This document shows positions 28,978 to 64,000 of a stretch of 64,000 nt of DNA, one piece after another (within the stretch, counting starts at the first letter, position 1; the number at the start of each line of letters is the position of its first letter). Made by a program: the position numbers and the translations under genes. Under the pieces are notes generated by a model. It did no database searches, was not told where the DNA came from, and worked only from the letters and a program-made list of their open reading frames with translations. Source of the DNA: Zoogloeaceae bacterium G21618-S1 (GTDB taxonomy: Bacteria > Pseudomonadota > Gammaproteobacteria > Burkholderiales > Rhodocyclaceae); contig JAPWHF010000008.1 of assembly GCA_027214125.1 (NCBI GenBank), positions 223,225 to 287,224 of the forward strand, in the 5' to 3' direction.

Positions 28978-29898
28978 GGTCTAGATTGGTAGCAGTCGGC
29001 AAGCGTAGGTGATACCGTTCAGGTCATGACCCGTCCCATCCGAATCGAGTTTTCTGGCGCCCTCTATCATGTCACTTCCCGTGGCGATCGACGCGAGGCG
29101 ATTTACGAAGACGATGCCGACCGGGAAAGTTTCCTGGCGCTGTTGGGTCAGGTGGCTGAGAGCTTCAACTGGGTTTGCCACGCCTTCTGCCTGATGACAA
29201 ATCACTACCATCTGGTTATCGAGACTCCGGATGGCAACCTGTCGAAGGGCATGCGTCAGCTCAATGGCGTGTTCACGCAGTACAGCAACCGTCGCCACCG
29301 GCGTGGCGGGCATTTGTTCCAAGGGCGTTTCAAGGCGATTCTGGTCGATGGCGACAGCTATCTGCTGGAGCTTGCACGTTACGTCGTTCTGAATCCCGTG
29401 CGCGCGCGGATGGTGGATGACCCCGGTGCGTGGCCGTGGAGCAGCTACCTGGCGATGCTCGGTGCGGCGGACGCTCCGCCATGGTTGGCGACCGATGGAC
29501 TGCTGGCGGCCTTTGCCAAGCGGCGCTCGGATGCGATTCGGCGTTACATGAAGTTTGTCGCAGAAGGGGTCGGCGCGGAGCCGATCTGGAATCATCTACA
29601 GGGGCAGGTATTCCTGGGTGACGATGATTTTGTGGCGCGCAGCCTGAAACACGCGAAGACGGCTGACACGGTGAACATTCCGAAGGCCCAGCGGCGACCG
29701 CCGCCGCCTGCACTCGGCGCAATCGCGCGGACGCATCAAGACCGCGATGCGGCGATGGTGGCCGCACACGCGACCGGCGCCTACAGCTACCAACAGATCG
29801 CCGAGCACTTTGGCGTGCACTTCACTACCGTTGGCCGGGTAGTGCGCGCTGCCAGGGGGCGTGGCGCGCATTGATGCTATTAAGCTAGGCCTGACCCC
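28971..29898 (+). mobile_element. RAYT transposase unit with inverted GGGGTCAGG ends
   Basis: The transposase gene is bracketed by GGGGTCAGGTCTA (28971-28983) and its near-complement TAGGCCTGACCCC (29886-29898), 12 of 13 bases matching. REP-associated tyrosine transposases usually sit between such REP-like sequences. Confidence 0.7.
29026..29874 (+). CDS. REP-associated tyrosine transposase (RAYT, Y1 family)
   Basis: 282 residues. IS200/IS605-like Y1 HUH transposase domain: GALYHVTSRGDRREAIYEDD, the HUH motif in MTNHYHLVIETP, and the catalytic tyrosine region LARYVVLNPVRARMV followed by WPWSSY. The C-terminal part (YSYQQIAEHFGVHFTTVGRV) is a helix-turn-helix added in many RAYTs. Single-strand transposase thought to spread REP sequences. 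Confidence 0.92.
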   Translation: MTRPIRIEFSGALYHVTSRGDRREAIYEDDADRESFLALLGQVAESFNWVCHAFCLMTNHYHLVIETPDGNLSKGMRQLNGVFTQYSNRRHRRGGHLFQGRFKAILVDGDSYLLELARYVVLNPVRARMVDDPGAWPWSSYLAMLGAADAPPWLATDGLLAAFAKRRSDAIRRYMKFVAEGVGAEPIWNHLQGQVFLGDDDFVARSLKHAKTADTVNIPKAQRRPPPPALGAIARTHQDRDAAMVAAHATGAYSYQQIAEHFGVHFTTVGRVVRAARGRGAH

Positions 29899-29927
29899 TT
29901 ACGCTCCCGTGACCCCTTACGCTCCCG
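29892..29927. repeat. 18-bp tandem repeat x2 at the right edge of the RAYT element
   Basis: TGACCCCTTACGCTCCCG occurs twice in a row (29892-29909, 29910-29927). The TGACCCC core is the complement of the left-edge GGGGTCA. Confidence 0.85.
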
Positions 29928-29951
29928 ATTTTTTCGTCTCCCACTGTTCCG

Positions 29952-30215
29952 TTGGGCTATGCCGACGGTGAACTGGACGTCTCGGAGCTCCCGAGAGAGG
30001 GTGAGGTGTTTCCTTGGCCAGAGCGAGTACGTACGGCAAAGCCAGAGTATTTTTCGGACCTTCAGAGTAAGGTTTGGGGTGTTTCTGTACCCGGGGCTGC
30101 GGGGCCGCTTGCGGTCGTAACGCTGTATGGCATCGTACTGCCCTCAAGGAACGAGGCGCTTGAGTGTTCTCGGTATCTTCAACAAACGCTGGGGCTGGGT
30201 TTCAATGAGCACTAA
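29952..30215 (+). CDS. hypothetical cassette protein, possibly 5'-truncated
   Basis: 87 residues if TTG at 29952 starts it: YADGELDVSELPREGEVFPW, then VTLYGIVLPSRNEALECSRY. No family recognised. The reading frame begins exactly at a GTTGGGC core (29951-29957) and ends 12 bp before an attC site, so it looks like a gene cassette. A start codon inside the recombination core without a ribosome-binding site is odd; the gene may be a remnant or start at an internal GTG near 30003. Confidence 0.5.
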   Translation: MGYADGELDVSELPREGEVFPWPERVRTAKPEYFSDLQSKVWGVSVPGAAGPLAVVTLYGIVLPSRNEALECSRYLQQTLGLGFNEH

Positions 30216-30227
30216 ATCTGCGCTTTC

Positions 30228-30302
30228 GCCCAACAATACGTTCGTGTGGGACCGTCCAAAATGCTGCGCATTTTTCCCGGCCCCACAACTAATTCGTTGG
30301 GC
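30228..30302 (+). other. attC site (integron), relic cluster site 1
   Basis: 75 bp bounded by GCCCAAC (30228-30234) and its complement GTTGGGC (30296-30302). Inner arms GTGTGGGACC and GGCCCCACAAC pair with mismatches, as in attC L boxes. Separates the 29952 and 30333 genes. Confidence 0.8.
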
Positions 30303-59370: not shown

Positions 59371-59404
59371 ACACCGCCGCCCGACAGAAACCGGAGCCCC
59401 CAAC

Positions 59405-60637
59405 ATGATCGACGAAGCCTTCCACCCCGACACTCTGCGCTGCGTCCTGCTCGAAGGCATCCACGCCTCTGCCGTAGACGTGTTCGAAAGCCACGGCTAC
59501 ACCCATGTCGAGCAACACGCCACCGCCCTCTCGGGCGACGCACTCACCGCCGCCATCGCCAAGGCCCACTTCATCGGCATCCGCTCCCGCACCCACCTGA
59601 CCGAGGCCGTGCTCGACAAAGCCCCGCACCTGCTCGCCATCGGCTGCTTCTGCATCGGCACCAACCAGGTTGACCTCGCCGCCGCCGCACGGCGCGGCAT
59701 CCCGGTGTTCAACGCCCCCTTCTCCAACACCCGCAGCGTCGCCGAGCTGGTGCTCGCCGAAATCATCATGCTGCTGCGCGGCATCCCCGAAAAAAACGCC
59801 GCCCAGCACCGCGGCGGCTGGATGAAACACGCCACCGGCTCGCACGAAGCGCGCGGCAAAACCCTCGGCATCATCGGCTACGGTCACATCGGCACCCAGA
59901 TCGGCATCCTCGCCGAACAACTCGGCATGCGCGTGCTCTACCACGACATCGAAAGCCGCCTCGCGCTGGGCAACGCCCACGCCGTCCCAACGCTCGACAC
60001 CCTGCTCGCCCAAGCCGACGTCGTCAGCCTGCATGTGCCTCAAACCCCCGCCACCCAGAACCTCATCAACGCCAAACGCCTCGCGCAGATGAAACCCGGC
60101 AGCCACCTCATCAACGCCTCGCGCGGCACCGTCGTCGACATCGACGCCCTCGCCCAGGCGCTGGCCAGCGGTCACCTGCGCGGCGCCGCCATCGACGTCT
60201 TCCCGCAGGAGCCCGGCGGCAACAGCGACAACTTCACCTCACCGCTGACCCGCTTCGATAACGTCATCCTTACCCCGCACATCGGTGGCTCCACGCTCGA
60301 AGCGCAAGAAAACATCGGCACCGAAGTCGCCACCCATCTCATGCGCTACGGCCAGAACGGCTCCGTGCTCATGGCCGTCAACTTCCCCGAACTCTCCCTC
60401 CCCGTCCAGCACGGCGCCACCCGCATCCTCCACATCCACCGCAACGTCCCCGGCGTCCTCGCCAAAATCAACGACATCGTCTCCGCCGCCGGCATCAACA
60501 TCGCCGCGCAGTACCTGCAAACCGGACCCGAGCTGGGGTATGCGGCGATTGATATCGATGCCGAACTATCGGCGGACGATCTCGGGCGGCTGCGGGGGAT
60601 TGACGGGACTTTGAGGTGCCGAACGCTGGTGCGGTAA
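59405..60637 (+). CDS. serA: D-3-phosphoglycerate dehydrogenase
   Basis: 410 residues. First step of serine synthesis. NAD fingerprint LGIIGYGHIGTQIGILAEQL, active-site region NASRGTVVDIDALAQAL, LTPHIGGSTLEAQENIG with catalytic histidine, and a C-terminal ACT domain (LHIHRNVPGVLAKINDIVS). Length equals E. coli SerA (410). Feeds on 3-phosphoglycerate, the product of RuBisCO. Confidence 0.96.
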   Translation: MIDEAFHPDTLRCVLLEGIHASAVDVFESHGYTHVEQHATALSGDALTAAIAKAHFIGIRSRTHLTEAVLDKAPHLLAIGCFCIGTNQVDLAAAARRGIPVFNAPFSNTRSVAELVLAEIIMLLRGIPEKNAAQHRGGWMKHATGSHEARGKTLGIIGYGHIGTQIGILAEQLGMRVLYHDIESRLALGNAHAVPTLDTLLAQADVVSLHVPQTPATQNLINAKRLAQMKPGSHLINASRGTVVDIDALAQALASGHLRGAAIDVFPQEPGGNSDNFTSPLTRFDNVILTPHIGGSTLEAQENIGTEVATHLMRYGQNGSVLMAVNFPELSLPVQHGATRILHIHRNVPGVLAKINDIVSAAGINIAAQYLQTGPELGYAAIDIDAELSADDLGRLRGIDGTLRCRTLVR

Positions 60638-60659
60638 TCGAATAGCCGCTTTGGTTGTG

Positions 60660-60701
60660 GCGCCACCCACAGGGGATGCAGACATTCCTTCTGGGTGGCG
60701 C
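60660..60701 (+). terminator. hairpin after serA, probable terminator
   Basis: 10-bp perfect stem GCGCCACCCA / TGGGTGGCGC (60660-60669 with 60692-60701) whose loop can extend the pairing. No clear T-run, so termination is an inference; it marks the edge between core gene and integron region. Confidence 0.5.
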
Positions 60702-60795
60702 TTGCCGTTTACCGGGGGCTCGGGTCTAATTCCTATCGGATATGACGATCCGCGACGAGTATCGCAACAACGCAGCCCTCTCGTGCGCCCTCCAA

Positions 60796-60941
60796 AGTGA
60801 CGCAATTGCCACTTGGTTTTAGGAGGGTCTACAACTAACTGGATCGTTGATTTTTAACAGCTTTTTTGATCTCACGAGTGACGATTGCGGCGCAGTGACG
60901 CAATGTTTTACGTCGATTAGGAGGTCTACTTATAGTTAGAT
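60796..60941 (+). other. duplicated motif and left cassette core: candidate attI region
   Basis: Two imperfect direct repeats of about 46 bp (60796-60841 and 60894-60941). Each starts AGTGACGCAAT, has TTAGGAGG exactly 23 bases later, then TCTAC. The second ends in the recombination core GTTAGAT (60935-60941), left edge of cassette 1. Repeated integrase-binding motifs next to a GTTRRRY core are how attI sites look. No integrase gene is adjacent (serA is upstream), so this remains a proposal. Confidence 0.5.
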
Positions 60942-60948
60942 CACTACT

Positions 60949-61665
60949 ATGGCCGTAACGATTAAACACTTGCCGATGGCCCCACATGTATTAGCGTGGC
61001 GCAAAAACATTGCCGAGGTGGATAGGCTCCTTGAAATACACAAGCAACTTTCCGGCAGTGGTCCTGGGCGGCGGCGTGATGTTCAAGTTCTAAACAAAAG
61101 TGCTCTTGTGATGCTCTTGGCTTGCTGGGAAGCGTATGTTGAGGATCTGGCAAAAAATGCTTTTGATGTGATGTTGAACAACGCATCGTCACCATCGGTT
61201 TTTCCAGAATTCGTGCTCGCGATTGCAGGCAAGGAAGTCAAGAATGGAGGAGCTGTCGATCTATGGTCTCTTGCAGGTGATGGCTGGAAGGATTCCCTAA
61301 AAAAGCATCGAGAAAAAATTCTCGACAAATACGTGGTCAAGGGTAGTTTCAATACTCCTAGCGCAGATAACATCGACAGACTTTTCTCCGAGTTAATTGG
61401 GCTTACTTCGGTATCAAGGCAATGGCATTGGCCAAAGATGAAAAATGCTGTGGCTCTCACTAAATTACAAATGCTTATTGAAAAGCGAGGCGAAATAGCC
61501 CATCGCGTGGAGTCAAGTGAAGCCGTCCTTAAGAAGGACATCGAAATGTATCGAAATCTTATTAGCCGGCTGTGCGTGATTACCCATAACCGAACTTTGG
61601 CTCTCATTTATGCACGAGTGAAAAAGCGGCCTTGGCGAAGATATAAATATGGAAAGACATCGTGA
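60949..61665 (+). CDS. HEPN (RiboL-PSP type) domain protein, cassette 1
   Basis: 238 residues. Helical; NKSALVMLLACWEAYVEDLA near residues 49-68 and EKRGEIAHRVE near 178-188 match the RiboL-PSP-HEPN pattern, with the HEPN R-x4-H motif at R180/H185. HEPN domains with this motif are usually metal-independent RNases in toxin-antitoxin, abortive-infection or RNA-processing systems. No antitoxin gene is adjacent. The start ATG is 8 bases after the cassette core and its stop overlaps the attC core. Function as a nuclease is inference. Confidence 0.75.
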   Translation: MAVTIKHLPMAPHVLAWRKNIAEVDRLLEIHKQLSGSGPGRRRDVQVLNKSALVMLLACWEAYVEDLAKNAFDVMLNNASSPSVFPEFVLAIAGKEVKNGGAVDLWSLAGDGWKDSLKKHREKILDKYVVKGSFNTPSADNIDRLFSELIGLTSVSRQWHWPKMKNAVALTKLQMLIEKRGEIAHRVESSEAVLKKDIEMYRNLISRLCVITHNRTLALIYARVKKRPWRRYKYGKTS

Positions 61666-61751
61666 TCTAACATGGCGCTCAACCTCGCTCCCTTTGGTCG
61701 CTGGACGCTGCGCGATAAAGCTGCGCAGCGCCGGTTAGCTCTACGTTGGGC
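61665..61751 (+). other. attC site of cassette 1
   Basis: 87 bp from ATCTAAC (61665-61671, overlapping the gene's stop) to GTTGGGC (61745-61751). Central stem CGCTGCGCGAT / GCTGCGCAGCG. Confidence 0.88.
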
Positions 61752-61757
61752 GTCTCA

Positions 61758-62258
61758 ATGACTGGCTTCGTTTGCGCCACTTGCGGGCAATATCACAACG
61801 AGTTGCCAATGTGCTTCGGTGCTAGCGCTCCTGCACTTTGGCTTTCTCTGTCGGAGGCCGAGCGCAATTCTCGCGCCAAACTTACCTCCGACCAATGCGT
61901 ATTGGATGACAAGCACTTCTTTGTCCTCGGTCGCATTCTTCTCCCGGTCATCGATGGGCCTGGCCCGTTCGTTTGGCTTGCGTGGGTCTCGCTGAGCGAA
62001 ACGAATTTCCTTCGTGCATGCGAACTCTGGCATAGCGAAGGGCGCGAAACTGAGCCTCCATATTTCGGGTGGCTGCAAAGTGCGCTGCCCTATGAGCCCA
62101 CCACTTTGAGTCTCAAGACCAGCGTACAAACCATGCCTGCTGGCGAGCGCTCCAACATTATCCTGGAGCCCTCCGATCATCCGCTGTCACTTGAACAACA
62201 GCATGGCATCACAATGGCTCGCGTTCAGCAAATTGCCGAGGCTTGTCTACATGGGTAG
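61758..62258 (+). CDS. DUF2199 domain protein, cassette 2
   Basis: 166 residues, whole length matches DUF2199: FVCATCGQYHNELPMCFGAS (Cys pair C6/C9, probably zinc-binding), KHFFVLGRILLPVIDGPGPF, FVWLAWVSLSETNF, EPPYFGWLQSALP, TLSLKTSVQTMPAGERSNI, LEPSDHPLSLEQQHGIT. Function unknown. DUF2199 genes occur often on mobile elements. ATG seven bases after the cassette core. Confidence 0.85.
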   Translation: MTGFVCATCGQYHNELPMCFGASAPALWLSLSEAERNSRAKLTSDQCVLDDKHFFVLGRILLPVIDGPGPFVWLAWVSLSETNFLRACELWHSEGRETEPPYFGWLQSALPYEPTTLSLKTSVQTMPAGERSNIILEPSDHPLSLEQQHGITMARVQQIAEACLHG

Positions 62259-62264
62259 CACGAC

Positions 62265-62336
62265 GCCCAACATCACAATCCACCGGACCTCCGGCAAGCT
62301 ACGCTTGCCTGCGTCCGGTGATTTTCCACGTTATGC
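62265..62336 (+). other. attC site of cassette 2
   Basis: 72 bp from GCCCAAC (62265-62271) to GTTATGC (62330-62336); inner arms CACCGGAC / GTCCGGTG form a perfect stem, with a second hairpin GGCAAGC/GCTTGCC. Confidence 0.88.
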
Positions 62337-62342
62337 ATAAAA

Positions 62343-62741
62343 ATGGAATATGTAGATAAACCTAATGGTGCCACATCTGACGAGATAGAAAACCTTGAGT
62401 CTTCTATCAAAGTGACTCTGCCAAATGACTATAAAAAGTTACTACTAGAAAGTGATGGCCCAATTTTATATTTCGGCCATAAAGAACTTCAGTTCTTTTC
62501 TGTTGGCGAAATATTAGGCGAGGATATTTATCAACTTAAGAAATATATGCCTAATTGTTTTCCAATTTGCCTAGATGGCAATAGCAATATTTGCGTAGCT
62601 AAAATTGAAAACCGAAAAATCATCGGTTTTTATGTGGCACCAACCAGCAACATTGGCTGGGATGATGCAAAATATATTACAGAGTCTTTCCAGGAATTTA
62701 TTACAGATGCGTTGTCACCTGAAAAAAAAGTATATGCATAA
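62343..62741 (+). CDS. SMI1/KNR4 (SUKH) family protein, cassette 3
   Basis: 132 residues. GATSDEIENLESSIKVTLPN then DYKKLLLESDGP is the SUKH signature (LP-x-DY), with a later IGFYVAPTSN region. SUKH proteins often serve as immunity proteins to contact-dependent or polymorphic nuclease toxins; here no toxin is adjacent. Strongly AT-rich compared with its neighbours, so recently acquired from a different genome. Confidence 0.8.
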   Translation: MEYVDKPNGATSDEIENLESSIKVTLPNDYKKLLLESDGPILYFGHKELQFFSVGEILGEDIYQLKKYMPNCFPICLDGNSNICVAKIENRKIIGFYVAPTSNIGWDDAKYITESFQEFITDALSPEKKVYA

Positions 62742-62816
62742 CAAGCGGGTCAAAGTCGCTCCCTTCGGTCGCTGGGACGCGCAAAAACCGCGCGCCCTTT
62801 ACCCTTAACGTTAGAA
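62736..62816 (+). other. attC site of cassette 3
   Basis: 81 bp from GCATAAC (62736-62742, overlapping the gene's end) to GTTAGAA (62810-62816). Contains CGCTCCCTTCGGTCGCTGG, close to CGCTCCCTTTGGTCGCTGG of the cassette-1 attC. Confidence 0.88.
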
Positions 62817-62820
62817 GGCC

Positions 62821-63753
62821 ATGAAATTTCCCAAGCGTGGCGTTACGCACAAAATCGAAACCGCCTCTTGGCGCCTATTGCAGGAGCTTGCGCCGGACGA
62901 ATGGATCGTGCGCGAAGTATCAGAGCGTGATTACGGCATAGATGCCTATATCGAAATCGTTACCTCCTCTGGCGAGGTCACAGGAAACTTGGTTTCCATC
63001 CAGCTGAAGGGGGTTCAAGAGCTCGTTTGGAAACCTGGAGAGAGCGGAATAAAGAGTGCGCGCTCTCCCTCCATCAAGACGACAACAGCGAACTACTGGC
63101 TAAATCTGCCGGTACCTGTCTTCCTGTTCGTAGCGGAACTCTCGACGCGAAAGATTTACTACGTCTCGGTTGAAGAAGGAATCCGGTCTCAATTTGAGAA
63201 CCTTTCGAAGCAGGATTCAATCACCTTCAAGCTAATGGACGAACTGAATATTGAGTCTTCCATCGGCGCTGCCTTATTCGATTGGTTCGTTGCCCGTGAA
63301 AGGGCGCATCACCATTTTGTATTTCATATCACGAATCTCCTTAGCCACATCGAGTCGTTTGGTGACTTCATCGTCTACAACCAAAACCGAGATTCGTTCA
63401 TGGAAGTTGAGTCGGACAGGCATTTACAGTTGCGAGCGCTTTACGAGGCGTGCCGCATGGCGTCGTTGTATCTAGATCGAGAATGGAAAGTCGACTCACT
63501 TAAGAGTTTGTATCTCCGAGATCGAGAAGAGTGGAATGACCCTTATATCTTGTTGCACGAAAGGACTCTTGATTGTGTTCTTAGGCAGCTTGAAGAAATT
63601 TTTCCTCAGCTTGTCCGTAAGGCTCTTAAGCTCATCTCAGAAACGCAGGCCTCATACTGGAAAAGTCGTGACGCTATGTTTTTCAGGCTCTGTAGCAATG
63701 GGGAACTTGAGTGGTCGATCAAACATCTTGAACAAAAGATCGGGGTGCCGTGA
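62821..63753 (+). CDS. DUF4365 domain protein, cassette 4
   Basis: 310 residues. N-terminal ~150 residues match DUF4365: ERDYGIDAYIEIV, then GNLVSIQLKGVQELVW. The spaced D41, E45 and Q61-x-K63 resemble a PD-(D/E)XK nuclease core. DUF4365 domains occur in predicted antiphage or restriction-like proteins. The C-terminal half is helical and unassigned. ATG four bases after the left cassette core. Confidence 0.8.
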   Translation: MKFPKRGVTHKIETASWRLLQELAPDEWIVREVSERDYGIDAYIEIVTSSGEVTGNLVSIQLKGVQELVWKPGESGIKSARSPSIKTTTANYWLNLPVPVFLFVAELSTRKIYYVSVEEGIRSQFENLSKQDSITFKLMDELNIESSIGAALFDWFVARERAHHHFVFHITNLLSHIESFGDFIVYNQNRDSFMEVESDRHLQLRALYEACRMASLYLDREWKVDSLKSLYLRDREEWNDPYILLHERTLDCVLRQLEEIFPQLVRKALKLISETQASYWKSRDAMFFRLCSNGELEWSIKHLEQKIGVP

Positions 63754-63760
63754 TCTGGCC

Positions 63761-63859
63761 TTCTAACCCCTCGGTCAACACGGACCGCCTGCAAGCTGCG
63801 CTTGCAGGTTCCCTCCGCCGCTTCGCGGCTCCGGCGGCCGGTTACCTCAAACGTTGAGG
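63761..63859 (+). other. attC site of cassette 4
   Basis: 99 bp from TTCTAAC (63761-63767) to GTTGAGG (63853-63859). Contains hairpins CCTGCAAGC/GCTTGCAGG and CCGCCGC...GCGGCTCCGG. The last core departs from GTTRRRY at its final base, perhaps because the IS end begins here. Confidence 0.8.
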
Positions 63860-63939
63860 CTGTAGAAAAACCTCCTCACCCCGCCCCTGCCAGATAATGC
63901 TTTTCGTATAATCAGGCATCGCCTTTGCGGAGTCTCGCG
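63860..63939 (+). other. probable left end of an insertion sequence
   Basis: CTGTAGAAAAACCTCCTCAC directly follows the last attC core and precedes a transposase-like start. TGT(A/T)GAAAAA is common at IS1182-type termini. The other end lies outside the window. Confidence 0.45.
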
Positions 63940-64000
63940 ATGCCACGCTTCAAGACACCCGACTACGGCCTGAAGATGGTCCCGGTGGATTTTGCGGCGC
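63940..64000 (+). CDS. transposase N-terminus (partial)
   Basis: ATG at 63940 with GGAG nine to ten bases upstream; the visible 20 residues read MPRFKTPDYGLKMVPVDF then AA, similar to starts of IS1182/IS4-like DDE transposases (xKPxDYGQMKxxPVxF). Cut by the window end. Confidence 0.55.
   Translation, partial: MPRFKTPDYGLKMVPVDFAA

What the first reader, a model, noticed from the sequence alone, without database searches (positions are those of the whole stretch)
60935..63860. Intact integron cassette array without an integrase (CALIN) beside serA
Four cassettes, each with a gene and an attC. The left-edge core and the attC-opening core of every cassette are exact reverse complements (four of four), which is the expected signature of cassettes that can excise as circles. 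The window holds no intI-like gene. Cassette genes are of the defence/toxin-immunity kind (HEPN, SUKH, DUF4365, DUF2199). The array continues into or past an insertion sequence at the right edge.
Basis: partly seen in the sequence, partly recalled or inferred. Interest (0 to 1): 0.85.

Follow-up and report, generated by a model that had tools for sequence, protein, structure and literature searches.

The report
Gene cassettes on orphan integron site
Next to the serA gene of a Denitromonas-like bacterium, four integron gene cassettes stand in line behind a sequence that matches an integron docking site but has no integrase gene beside it; an intact integrase gene lies elsewhere in the same genome and likely fills such detached sites from a distance, and similar orphan sites recur across the bacterial family.

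Summary
Reading it as a plain CALIN misses the main point. Between serA and cassette 1 lies a 143-bp two-box attI (60797-60939). A model built without any serA-locus sequence finds it as its only hit in the window (71 bits, E 4e-21). It is homologous to the attI beside an intact intI in a sister species. The genome has one intact integron integrase, on another contig. Three sister species share the serA attI: one holds other cassettes, one a single different cassette, one a transposon-like insert at the core. In the wider family, 60 of 74 attI matches were fetched: 19 lie beside full-length intI, 6 beside partial intI, 35 beside none, and 24 of those 35 have an attC within 3 kb. Single-contig genomes show the same. 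Best explanation: orphan attI docking sites, probably left by intI loss and likely served in trans. Trans service is inferred, not shown. New variant of a known kind. An IS1182-like element, seen only beside attC-type cores, ends the array.

The parts
59402..60637 (+). serA (phosphoglycerate dehydrogenase), fixed left flank of the site
   Evidence: Pfam 2-Hacid_dh_C/2-Hacid_dh/ACT; 97% identical to a Denitromonas halophila MAG protein
60797..60939 (+). orphan attI, two-box ('type B') element; no intI beside it
   Evidence: Leave-serA-out model R3: only hit in 64 kb, 71.2 bits, E 3.7e-21; homologous to the attI beside intact intI in G004
60797..60833 (+). box A of the attI (GTGACG...TTTTAGGAGGGTCTACA)
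   Evidence: aligned in 11 sites; position
60895..60941 (+). box B of the attI with imperfect inverted repeat 60897-60914 and recombination core GTTAGAT 60935-60941
60935..61744 (+). cassette 1
   Evidence: core to core, R'' match 7/7
60949..61665 (+). HEPN (RiboL-PSP-HEPN, PF18735) gene
   Evidence: 65.9 bits; 97 homologues at E<=1e-3 among 408 candidates
61665..61751 (+). attC1 (model matches bottom strand)
   Evidence: 34.4 bits, E 1.4e-6
61745..62329 (+). cassette 2
   Evidence: R'' match 7/7
61758..62258 (+). DUF2199 gene (likely ATG start at 61758, checked; the ORF list starts at TTG 61746 inside the core)
   Evidence: 151.3 bits
62265..62336 (+). attC2
   Evidence: 17.7 bits, E 0.028; bottom-strand DNA fold z -4.5
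62330..62809 (+). cassette 3
   Evidence: R'' match 7/7
62343..62741 (+). SUKH-1 (SMI1/KNR4, PF09346) gene
   Evidence: 49.9 bits
62736..62816 (+). attC3
   Evidence: 20.9 bits, E 0.0043; fold z only -0.7
62810..63852 (+). cassette 4
   Evidence: R'' match 7/7
62821..63753 (+). DUF4365 gene
   Evidence: 65.8 bits; PADLOC Aga_REase-PNTD1-PNTD2 E 1.1e-11 over residues 34-124
63761..63859 (+). attC4
   Evidence: 42.2 bits, E 1.4e-8
63856..64000 (+). left end of an IS1182-like insertion sequence (transposase ATG at 63940, runs off the contig)
   Evidence: same left end at C7 and C44; full-length transposase in G003 L153
30228..30302 (+). separate lone attC in the window (not part of the array)
   Evidence: 30.9 bits, E 1.1e-5

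Best explanation
The array is four integron cassettes lined up behind an orphan attI, a homologue of an integron docking site with no integrase gene beside it, and it is likely filled and reshuffled in trans by an integron integrase encoded elsewhere in the genome. Shown: the four attCs and matched cores; a two-box attI between serA and cassette 1 homologous to the attI beside an intact intI in a sister species; one intact intI on another contig of the same genome; the same serA-attI junction in three sister species, one with different cassettes, one with a single different cassette, one interrupted at the core; many such intI-less attI sites in the genus and family, including single-contig genomes. 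Inferred: these sites are remnants of integrons that lost intI (short intI stubs survive at several other orphan sites, none recognisable at serA); an IntI made elsewhere binds the folded attC bottom strand, recombines it with the core GTT of the orphan attI, and so inserts or exchanges cassettes; the genes are read from a promoter at or near the attI. An IS1182-like element probably inserted later at the core of the last attC, and the assembly breaks there.
For: Leave-serA-out attI model: one hit in the window, 71.2 bits. Exactly three zero-mismatch copies of GTCTACTTATAGTTA in the own genome: beside intact intI (C7), beside broken intI (C44) and in the window. Genus: 12 two-box attI sites in 6 of 10 genomes, one of them beside an intact intI. 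Same flank, different cassettes at four loci: upstream 600 bp 85-97% identical; past the core the printed matches are attC-like pieces, and at C10/C29 the common right flank resumes after the cassettes (first six matches per pair printed). A 459-bp cassette is 100% identical in the G002 serA array and behind another orphan attI in G000, identity starting and stopping at the cores. Family: 45 of 199 genomes hit, versus 2 of 200 across the phylum, each count including the window's own genome. Of 60 fetched non-genus sites (of 74 hits), 19 lie beside full-length intI, 6 beside partial, 35 beside none; 24 of the 35 have attC within 3 kb. All 127 attC hits (E<=0.1) in those 60 regions lie downstream in the right orientation. 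Single-contig genomes G091, G164 and G019 hold an intact intI and distant orphan attI with exactly matched first cassettes.
Against: No recombination was observed. The only intact intI found in the window genome (C7) sits beside a different attI type ('type A') that the type-B model does not detect; only the 15-bp core is exactly shared, and cross-recognition between an IntI and a foreign attI is untested here. G005 carries two orphan attI sites but no TIGR02249 match at E<=1e-40. The serA site shows no significant intI stub (best tblastn E 0.2), so loss of intI there is inferred by analogy. In G003 and G006 the match ends with serA, without the element. With 2 mismatches allowed, the core pattern is no commoner than its reversed control (4 against 7 in the own genome); only exact copies stand out. 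attC2 and attC3 are weak alone and miss E 0.01 genome-wide. First-cassette core matches fail in 6 of 39 family cases, although the best GTT near the attI end was chosen, and 13 of 48 genus cassettes are not exact. 11 of the 35 intI-less family sites have no attC within 3 kb.
Confidence: 0.72

Rival explanations
1. A frozen relic: a once complete integron at serA lost its intI, and the cassettes left behind no longer move.
For: intI stubs next to other orphan attI: 22 residues 100% identical to the G004 IntI at G005:C40; short IntI starts read by eye at type A and C orphans; a broken intI at C44. Loss of intI is one of the CALIN origins listed in PMC8618304 (passage seen).
Against: All four cores are still exact; sister species with 85-97% identical flanks carry other cassettes; a cassette identical over 459 bp sits behind two different orphan sites in two species.
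Confidence: 0.15
2. Cassette contents at orphan sites changed by homologous exchange or transfer of whole arrays through the conserved flanks, not by integrase acting on the orphan attI.
For: Flanks are similar enough for exchange, and sites are shared between species.
Against: Identity of the shared cassette starts and stops at the cores, and it lies behind different attI types in different flanks; at the four compared loci the upstream match runs to the core and the cassettes after it differ.
Confidence: 0.09
3. Off-target insertion: cassettes landed at a chance GTT-like secondary site (attG) by serA.
For: attG insertion into bacterial genomes is described (mentioned in PMC12444791 and PMC12901181); PMC10127599 says that attI-like sites are frequent across genomes (passage).
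Against: The site is a 143-bp homologue of a real attI, present at serA in four species, once without a recognised cassette (G005).
Confidence: 0.02
4. Assembly break: the array belongs to an integron whose intI lies beyond the contig end.
For: The contig ends inside an IS just after attC4, and draft genomes overcount CALINs (PMC9024848, passage).
Against: intI would be expected on the serA side of the attI, where the rest of the contig is assembled without one; the serA-attI junction recurs in G002, G005 and G009; single-contig genomes show the same arrangement.
Confidence: 0.02

Closest known systems
CALIN (clusters of attC lacking integron-integrase)
   Same: Several attCs with cassettes and no intI beside them; that an IntI may excise or capture CALIN cassettes in trans is already in print (PMC9668308 and PMC12444791, passages).
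   Different: Anchored by a recognisable full attI at a conserved chromosomal locus; the CALIN definition says nothing about attI, and IntegronFinder 2.0 does not detect attI outside class 1 (PMC9024848, passage).
CALIN with its own attI in Shewanella prophage M16-3
   Different: One case inside one prophage; here the sites are dispersed over chromosomes, of several attI types, shared between species and found in many genera.
Xanthomonas CALINs at conserved loci away from ilvD-intI
   Same: intI-less cassette clusters at recurrent chromosomal positions (PMC12444791, passages).
   Different: No attI at those CALINs is mentioned in the passages that I saw; orphan attI would be a testable explanation for their fixed positions.
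Complete chromosomal integron (G004 C1:1839295, G000 C7)
   Same: attI, cassettes and attCs of the same make.
   Different: intI adjacent there, absent here.

Membership tests
[quoted passage not shown]
   four attCs, two strong and two weak; cores 4 of 4
CALIN | no integron integrase nearby | tested here: met
   no TIGR02249 match on contig C65; the right side is open because the contig ends in the IS
Complete integron | intI adjacent to attI | tested here: not met
   serA lies upstream of the attI; no match, and tblastn gives no significant stub
Complete integron | attI at the array start | tested here: met
   leave-locus-out model
Complete integron | cassettes in one orientation with matching R'/R'' cores | tested here: met
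   4 of 4
Complete integron | cassette promoter Pc | tested here: inconclusive
   one 9-of-12 promoter-like match at 60907-60936, mean 0.3 in shuffles
attI site | homology to sites directly upstream of intact intI | tested here: met
   G004 and 19 of 60 fetched family hits beside full-length intI
attI site | recombines with attC through IntI | not testable with these tools
   needs a recombination assay
attG insertion | site without attI or attC homology | tested here: not met
   site is an attI homologue

The most novel reading that the evidence does not exclude
A split integron: one integrase works a network of dedicated integrase-free attI docking sites spread round the chromosome. These orphan attI sites are kept over species lifetimes and outnumber integrase-linked ones in this bacterial family, so that many CALINs are live outstations, not debris.
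Probability: 0.45. Interest if true: 0.8.

Novelty: new variant of a known kind. Interest (0 to 1): 0.63.

Why it matters
CALINs are about as numerous as complete integrons (2961 against 2760 in PMC9024848, passage) and are usually read as decay or off-target insertion. If many begin with an orphan attI, one integrase could write to several expression sites at once, conserved CALIN positions get a simple explanation, and annotation tools need attI models. It makes a vague question, how CALINs form and whether they live, testable with defined sites and two-plasmid assays in E. coli K-12.

Tried and rejected
Rfam scan for attC: nothing up to E 1. Single-site folds give mixed z-scores (bottom strands -1.7, -4.5, -0.7, -3.2), so a covariance model was made. 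A first ungapped attC alignment gave a poor RNAalifold consensus and was replaced by A3 with a structure set by hand. serA as query in genome contigs returned 80 loci, none titled Denitromonas, and the IMG/VR scan with the IntI N-terminus gave 3 loci that were not used. A search for an intI stub at serA gave only insignificant matches (serA loci E 0.2 and above). The hairpin 60660-60701, shared with the C2 locus, was left unexplained. G000:C10 and G005:C40, compared as a possible fifth same-locus pair, share only a 162-bp stretch at 75% and were not counted. One literature query matched 'attitude' and was useless. One script printed nothing. The type-B model without serA rows does not find type A or C attI, so those were found by core pattern (15 hits in 10 genomes against 2 for the reversed control).

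Limits: 14 of 74 non-genus attI hits were not fetched; 3 IntI proteins were used as queries for the intI neighbour test; type A and C orphan sites were sought only inside the genus; R1 contains four serA rows, and R3 is the clean test for the window.
Full report
What was claimed and what is there. A covariance model of attC was built from 11 attCs outside the window (alignment A3, structure given by hand). Two of the four are weak alone (E 0.028 and 0.0043) and miss E 0.01 in a whole-genome search; the two strong ones have 93% and 80% relatives in the training set. The core test does not depend on model scores: left core and R'' are exact reverse complements in 4 of 4 window cassettes and in 35 of 48 over 16 genus loci, against a mean of 5.2 and a maximum of 13 in 2000 shuffles. 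The genes are HEPN_RiboL-PSP, DUF2199, SUKH-1 and DUF4365; a PADLOC Aga_REase model matches part of the last. What they do is untested.

Organism. The serA product is 97% identical to a protein named from a Denitromonas halophila MAG; Denitromonas is in Rhodocyclales.

The missed part: an attI. Pattern search in the own genome gives exactly three exact copies of GTCTACTTATAGTTA (with two mismatches allowed the pattern does not exceed its reversed control, 4 against 7). One lies beside the only intact integron integrase found (C7:80405-81349, 476 bits), one beside a broken intI (C44), and one in the window at the left edge of cassette 1. The window sequence before the core is a 143-bp two-box element. 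It is homologous to the stretch directly upstream of an intact intI in sister species G004, that is, to an attI. To avoid circularity a model was built from seven sites, none at serA; in the window it has one hit, 60797-60939, 71.2 bits, E 3.7e-21. A degenerate core pattern shows two more attI of a third type (C2, C3), and C10 holds a second two-box site, so the genome has at least six attI, one of them beside an intact intI.

The sites are old and their contents change. In the genus the two-box model gives 12 sites in 6 of 10 genomes; one (G004 C1:1839295) is beside an intact intI. The serA site is present in G000, G002, G005 and G009; in G003 and G006 the match ends with serA. Upstream identity over 600 bp is 96.8% (G000/G002), 84.7% (G000/G009) and 91.5% (G000/G005). 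Downstream of the core the printed matches between G000 and G002 are attC pieces, G009 gives no match to G000, and in G005 the core is followed by 243 bp of unrelated, transposon-like DNA (by eye) before the contig ends. C10/C29, C2/C31 and G006:C8/G009:C4 show the same change after the core. A cassette in the G002 serA array is 100% identical over 459 bp to one behind a different orphan attI in G000, and the identity begins and ends at the cores. This is the best sign of recent site-specific movement.

How far it goes. In 199 genomes of the family the model hits 45 genomes in 23 of 68 genera (41 genomes outside the genus, 74 hits); across the phylum it hits 2 of 200 genomes, one of them the window's own (many of those genomes may have no integron, so this bounds false hits but does not measure attI spread). 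Of the 74 non-genus hits, 60 were fetched. Nineteen lie beside a full-length intI, which validates the model as an attI finder; 6 lie beside a partial intI; 35 have no intI within 2 kb, and 34 of these 35 have at least 1 kb of upstream sequence. Of the 35, 24 have an attC within 3 kb, median 521 bp; 11 do not. All 127 attC hits at E<=0.1 in the 60 regions lie downstream of the attI in the right orientation. The first cassette's core is exact in 33 of 39 sites; among the intI-less ones it is 19 of 23 measured, and one more had no GTT in place. Each of the 41 genomes has some TIGR02249 match at E<=1e-15, which includes other tyrosine recombinases (6 of 14 control genomes ring too); in 33 of 41 at least one is over the curated cut-off. 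Single-contig genomes speak against assembly breaks: G091 has an intact intI at 1170946 and orphan sites at 2878555 and 636671; G164 has one at 1512769 and orphans at 3835562 and 3224755; G019 has one at 1793986 and an orphan at 1254003, all five orphans with exact first-cassette cores. Two G027 orphan hits have poor cores and the G154 orphan lacks the GTT; these are not counted as support.

Mechanism. Shown: attI homology, matched cores, same-site turnover, intact intI elsewhere. Inferred: an IntI acting in trans recombines attC with the orphan attI. Origin by intI loss is supported at other sites by stubs (22 of 22 residues at G005:C40; short IntI starts read by eye at type A and C orphans) but leaves no significant trace at serA. 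The main weakness is that the intact IntI found in this genome belongs to another attI type. G005 has orphan sites and no intI match at E<=1e-40, so some sites may be stranded.

Against the literature (passages seen, not whole papers). Three CALIN origins are listed in PMC8618304 (off-target insertion, intI loss, rearrangement). That CALIN cassettes can be moved by an IntI in trans is stated in PMC9668308 and PMC12444791. A CALIN with its own attI is reported in one Shewanella prophage (PMC9892861). Xanthomonas CALINs at conserved loci are reported without attI in the passages seen (PMC12444791). IntegronFinder does not detect attI outside class 1 (PMC9024848). Off-target integrase work at attI-like secondary sites is discussed in PMC10127599. 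Searches in the open library listed no paper that I recognised as reporting dispersed chromosomal orphan attI; I opened seven papers by passages only, and subscription papers are not covered. So this is a variant of a known kind with a precedent, not a new class.

The IS at the edge. The array ends in an IS. The full copy in G003 has an IS1182-like transposase (NF033551 255 bits, below its cut-off of 270). Among the ends printed from the genus loci, 8 of 8 left ends follow CGTT and 5 of 5 right ends precede [G/T]TCGTTAG, which suggests insertion at the attC core; two of the eight left ends (L134, second one in L153) lead into a different interior. The own genome has three left ends and two right ends near contig edges, so the window array probably continues beyond the IS.

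Noticed in passing
window 63856-64000; L153 205-1985; L186, L188: IS1182-like element whose printed ends all sit at attC-type cores (8 of 8 left ends, 5 of 5 right ends). The IS1111-attC group is the known attC-targeting IS set (recalled); this one belongs to another family.
   Followed up: partly
window 29028-30302: Lone attC at 30228-30302 behind a cassette-gene remnant similar by eye to a cassette in G001 (L167) and next to a REP-type transposase gene (by eye): a second small cassette cluster in the window.
   Followed up: partly
window 60651-60743: 42-bp hairpin plus about 50 bp shared at 83% with the upstream flank of the C2/C31 orphan attI loci, and in part with G003:C120 and G005:C31; a dispersed repeat of unknown role.
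   Followed up: no
L189 (G000:C19) and L196 (G006:C8): A 353-bp cassette 90% identical behind two different attI types in two species.
   Followed up: partly
G027:C1:851613 and 4307788 (L250, L254); L262, L263: attI hits followed by the same non-cassette sequence (GTTGCTCGAGA or GTTGAACTAAA) instead of a matched cassette; possibly capped or degenerate sites.
   Followed up: no
window 62821-63753: DUF4365 cassette protein partly matches the PADLOC model Aga_REase-PNTD1-PNTD2 (E 1.1e-11); the link to Argonaute-type defence is my reading of the model name.
   Followed up: no
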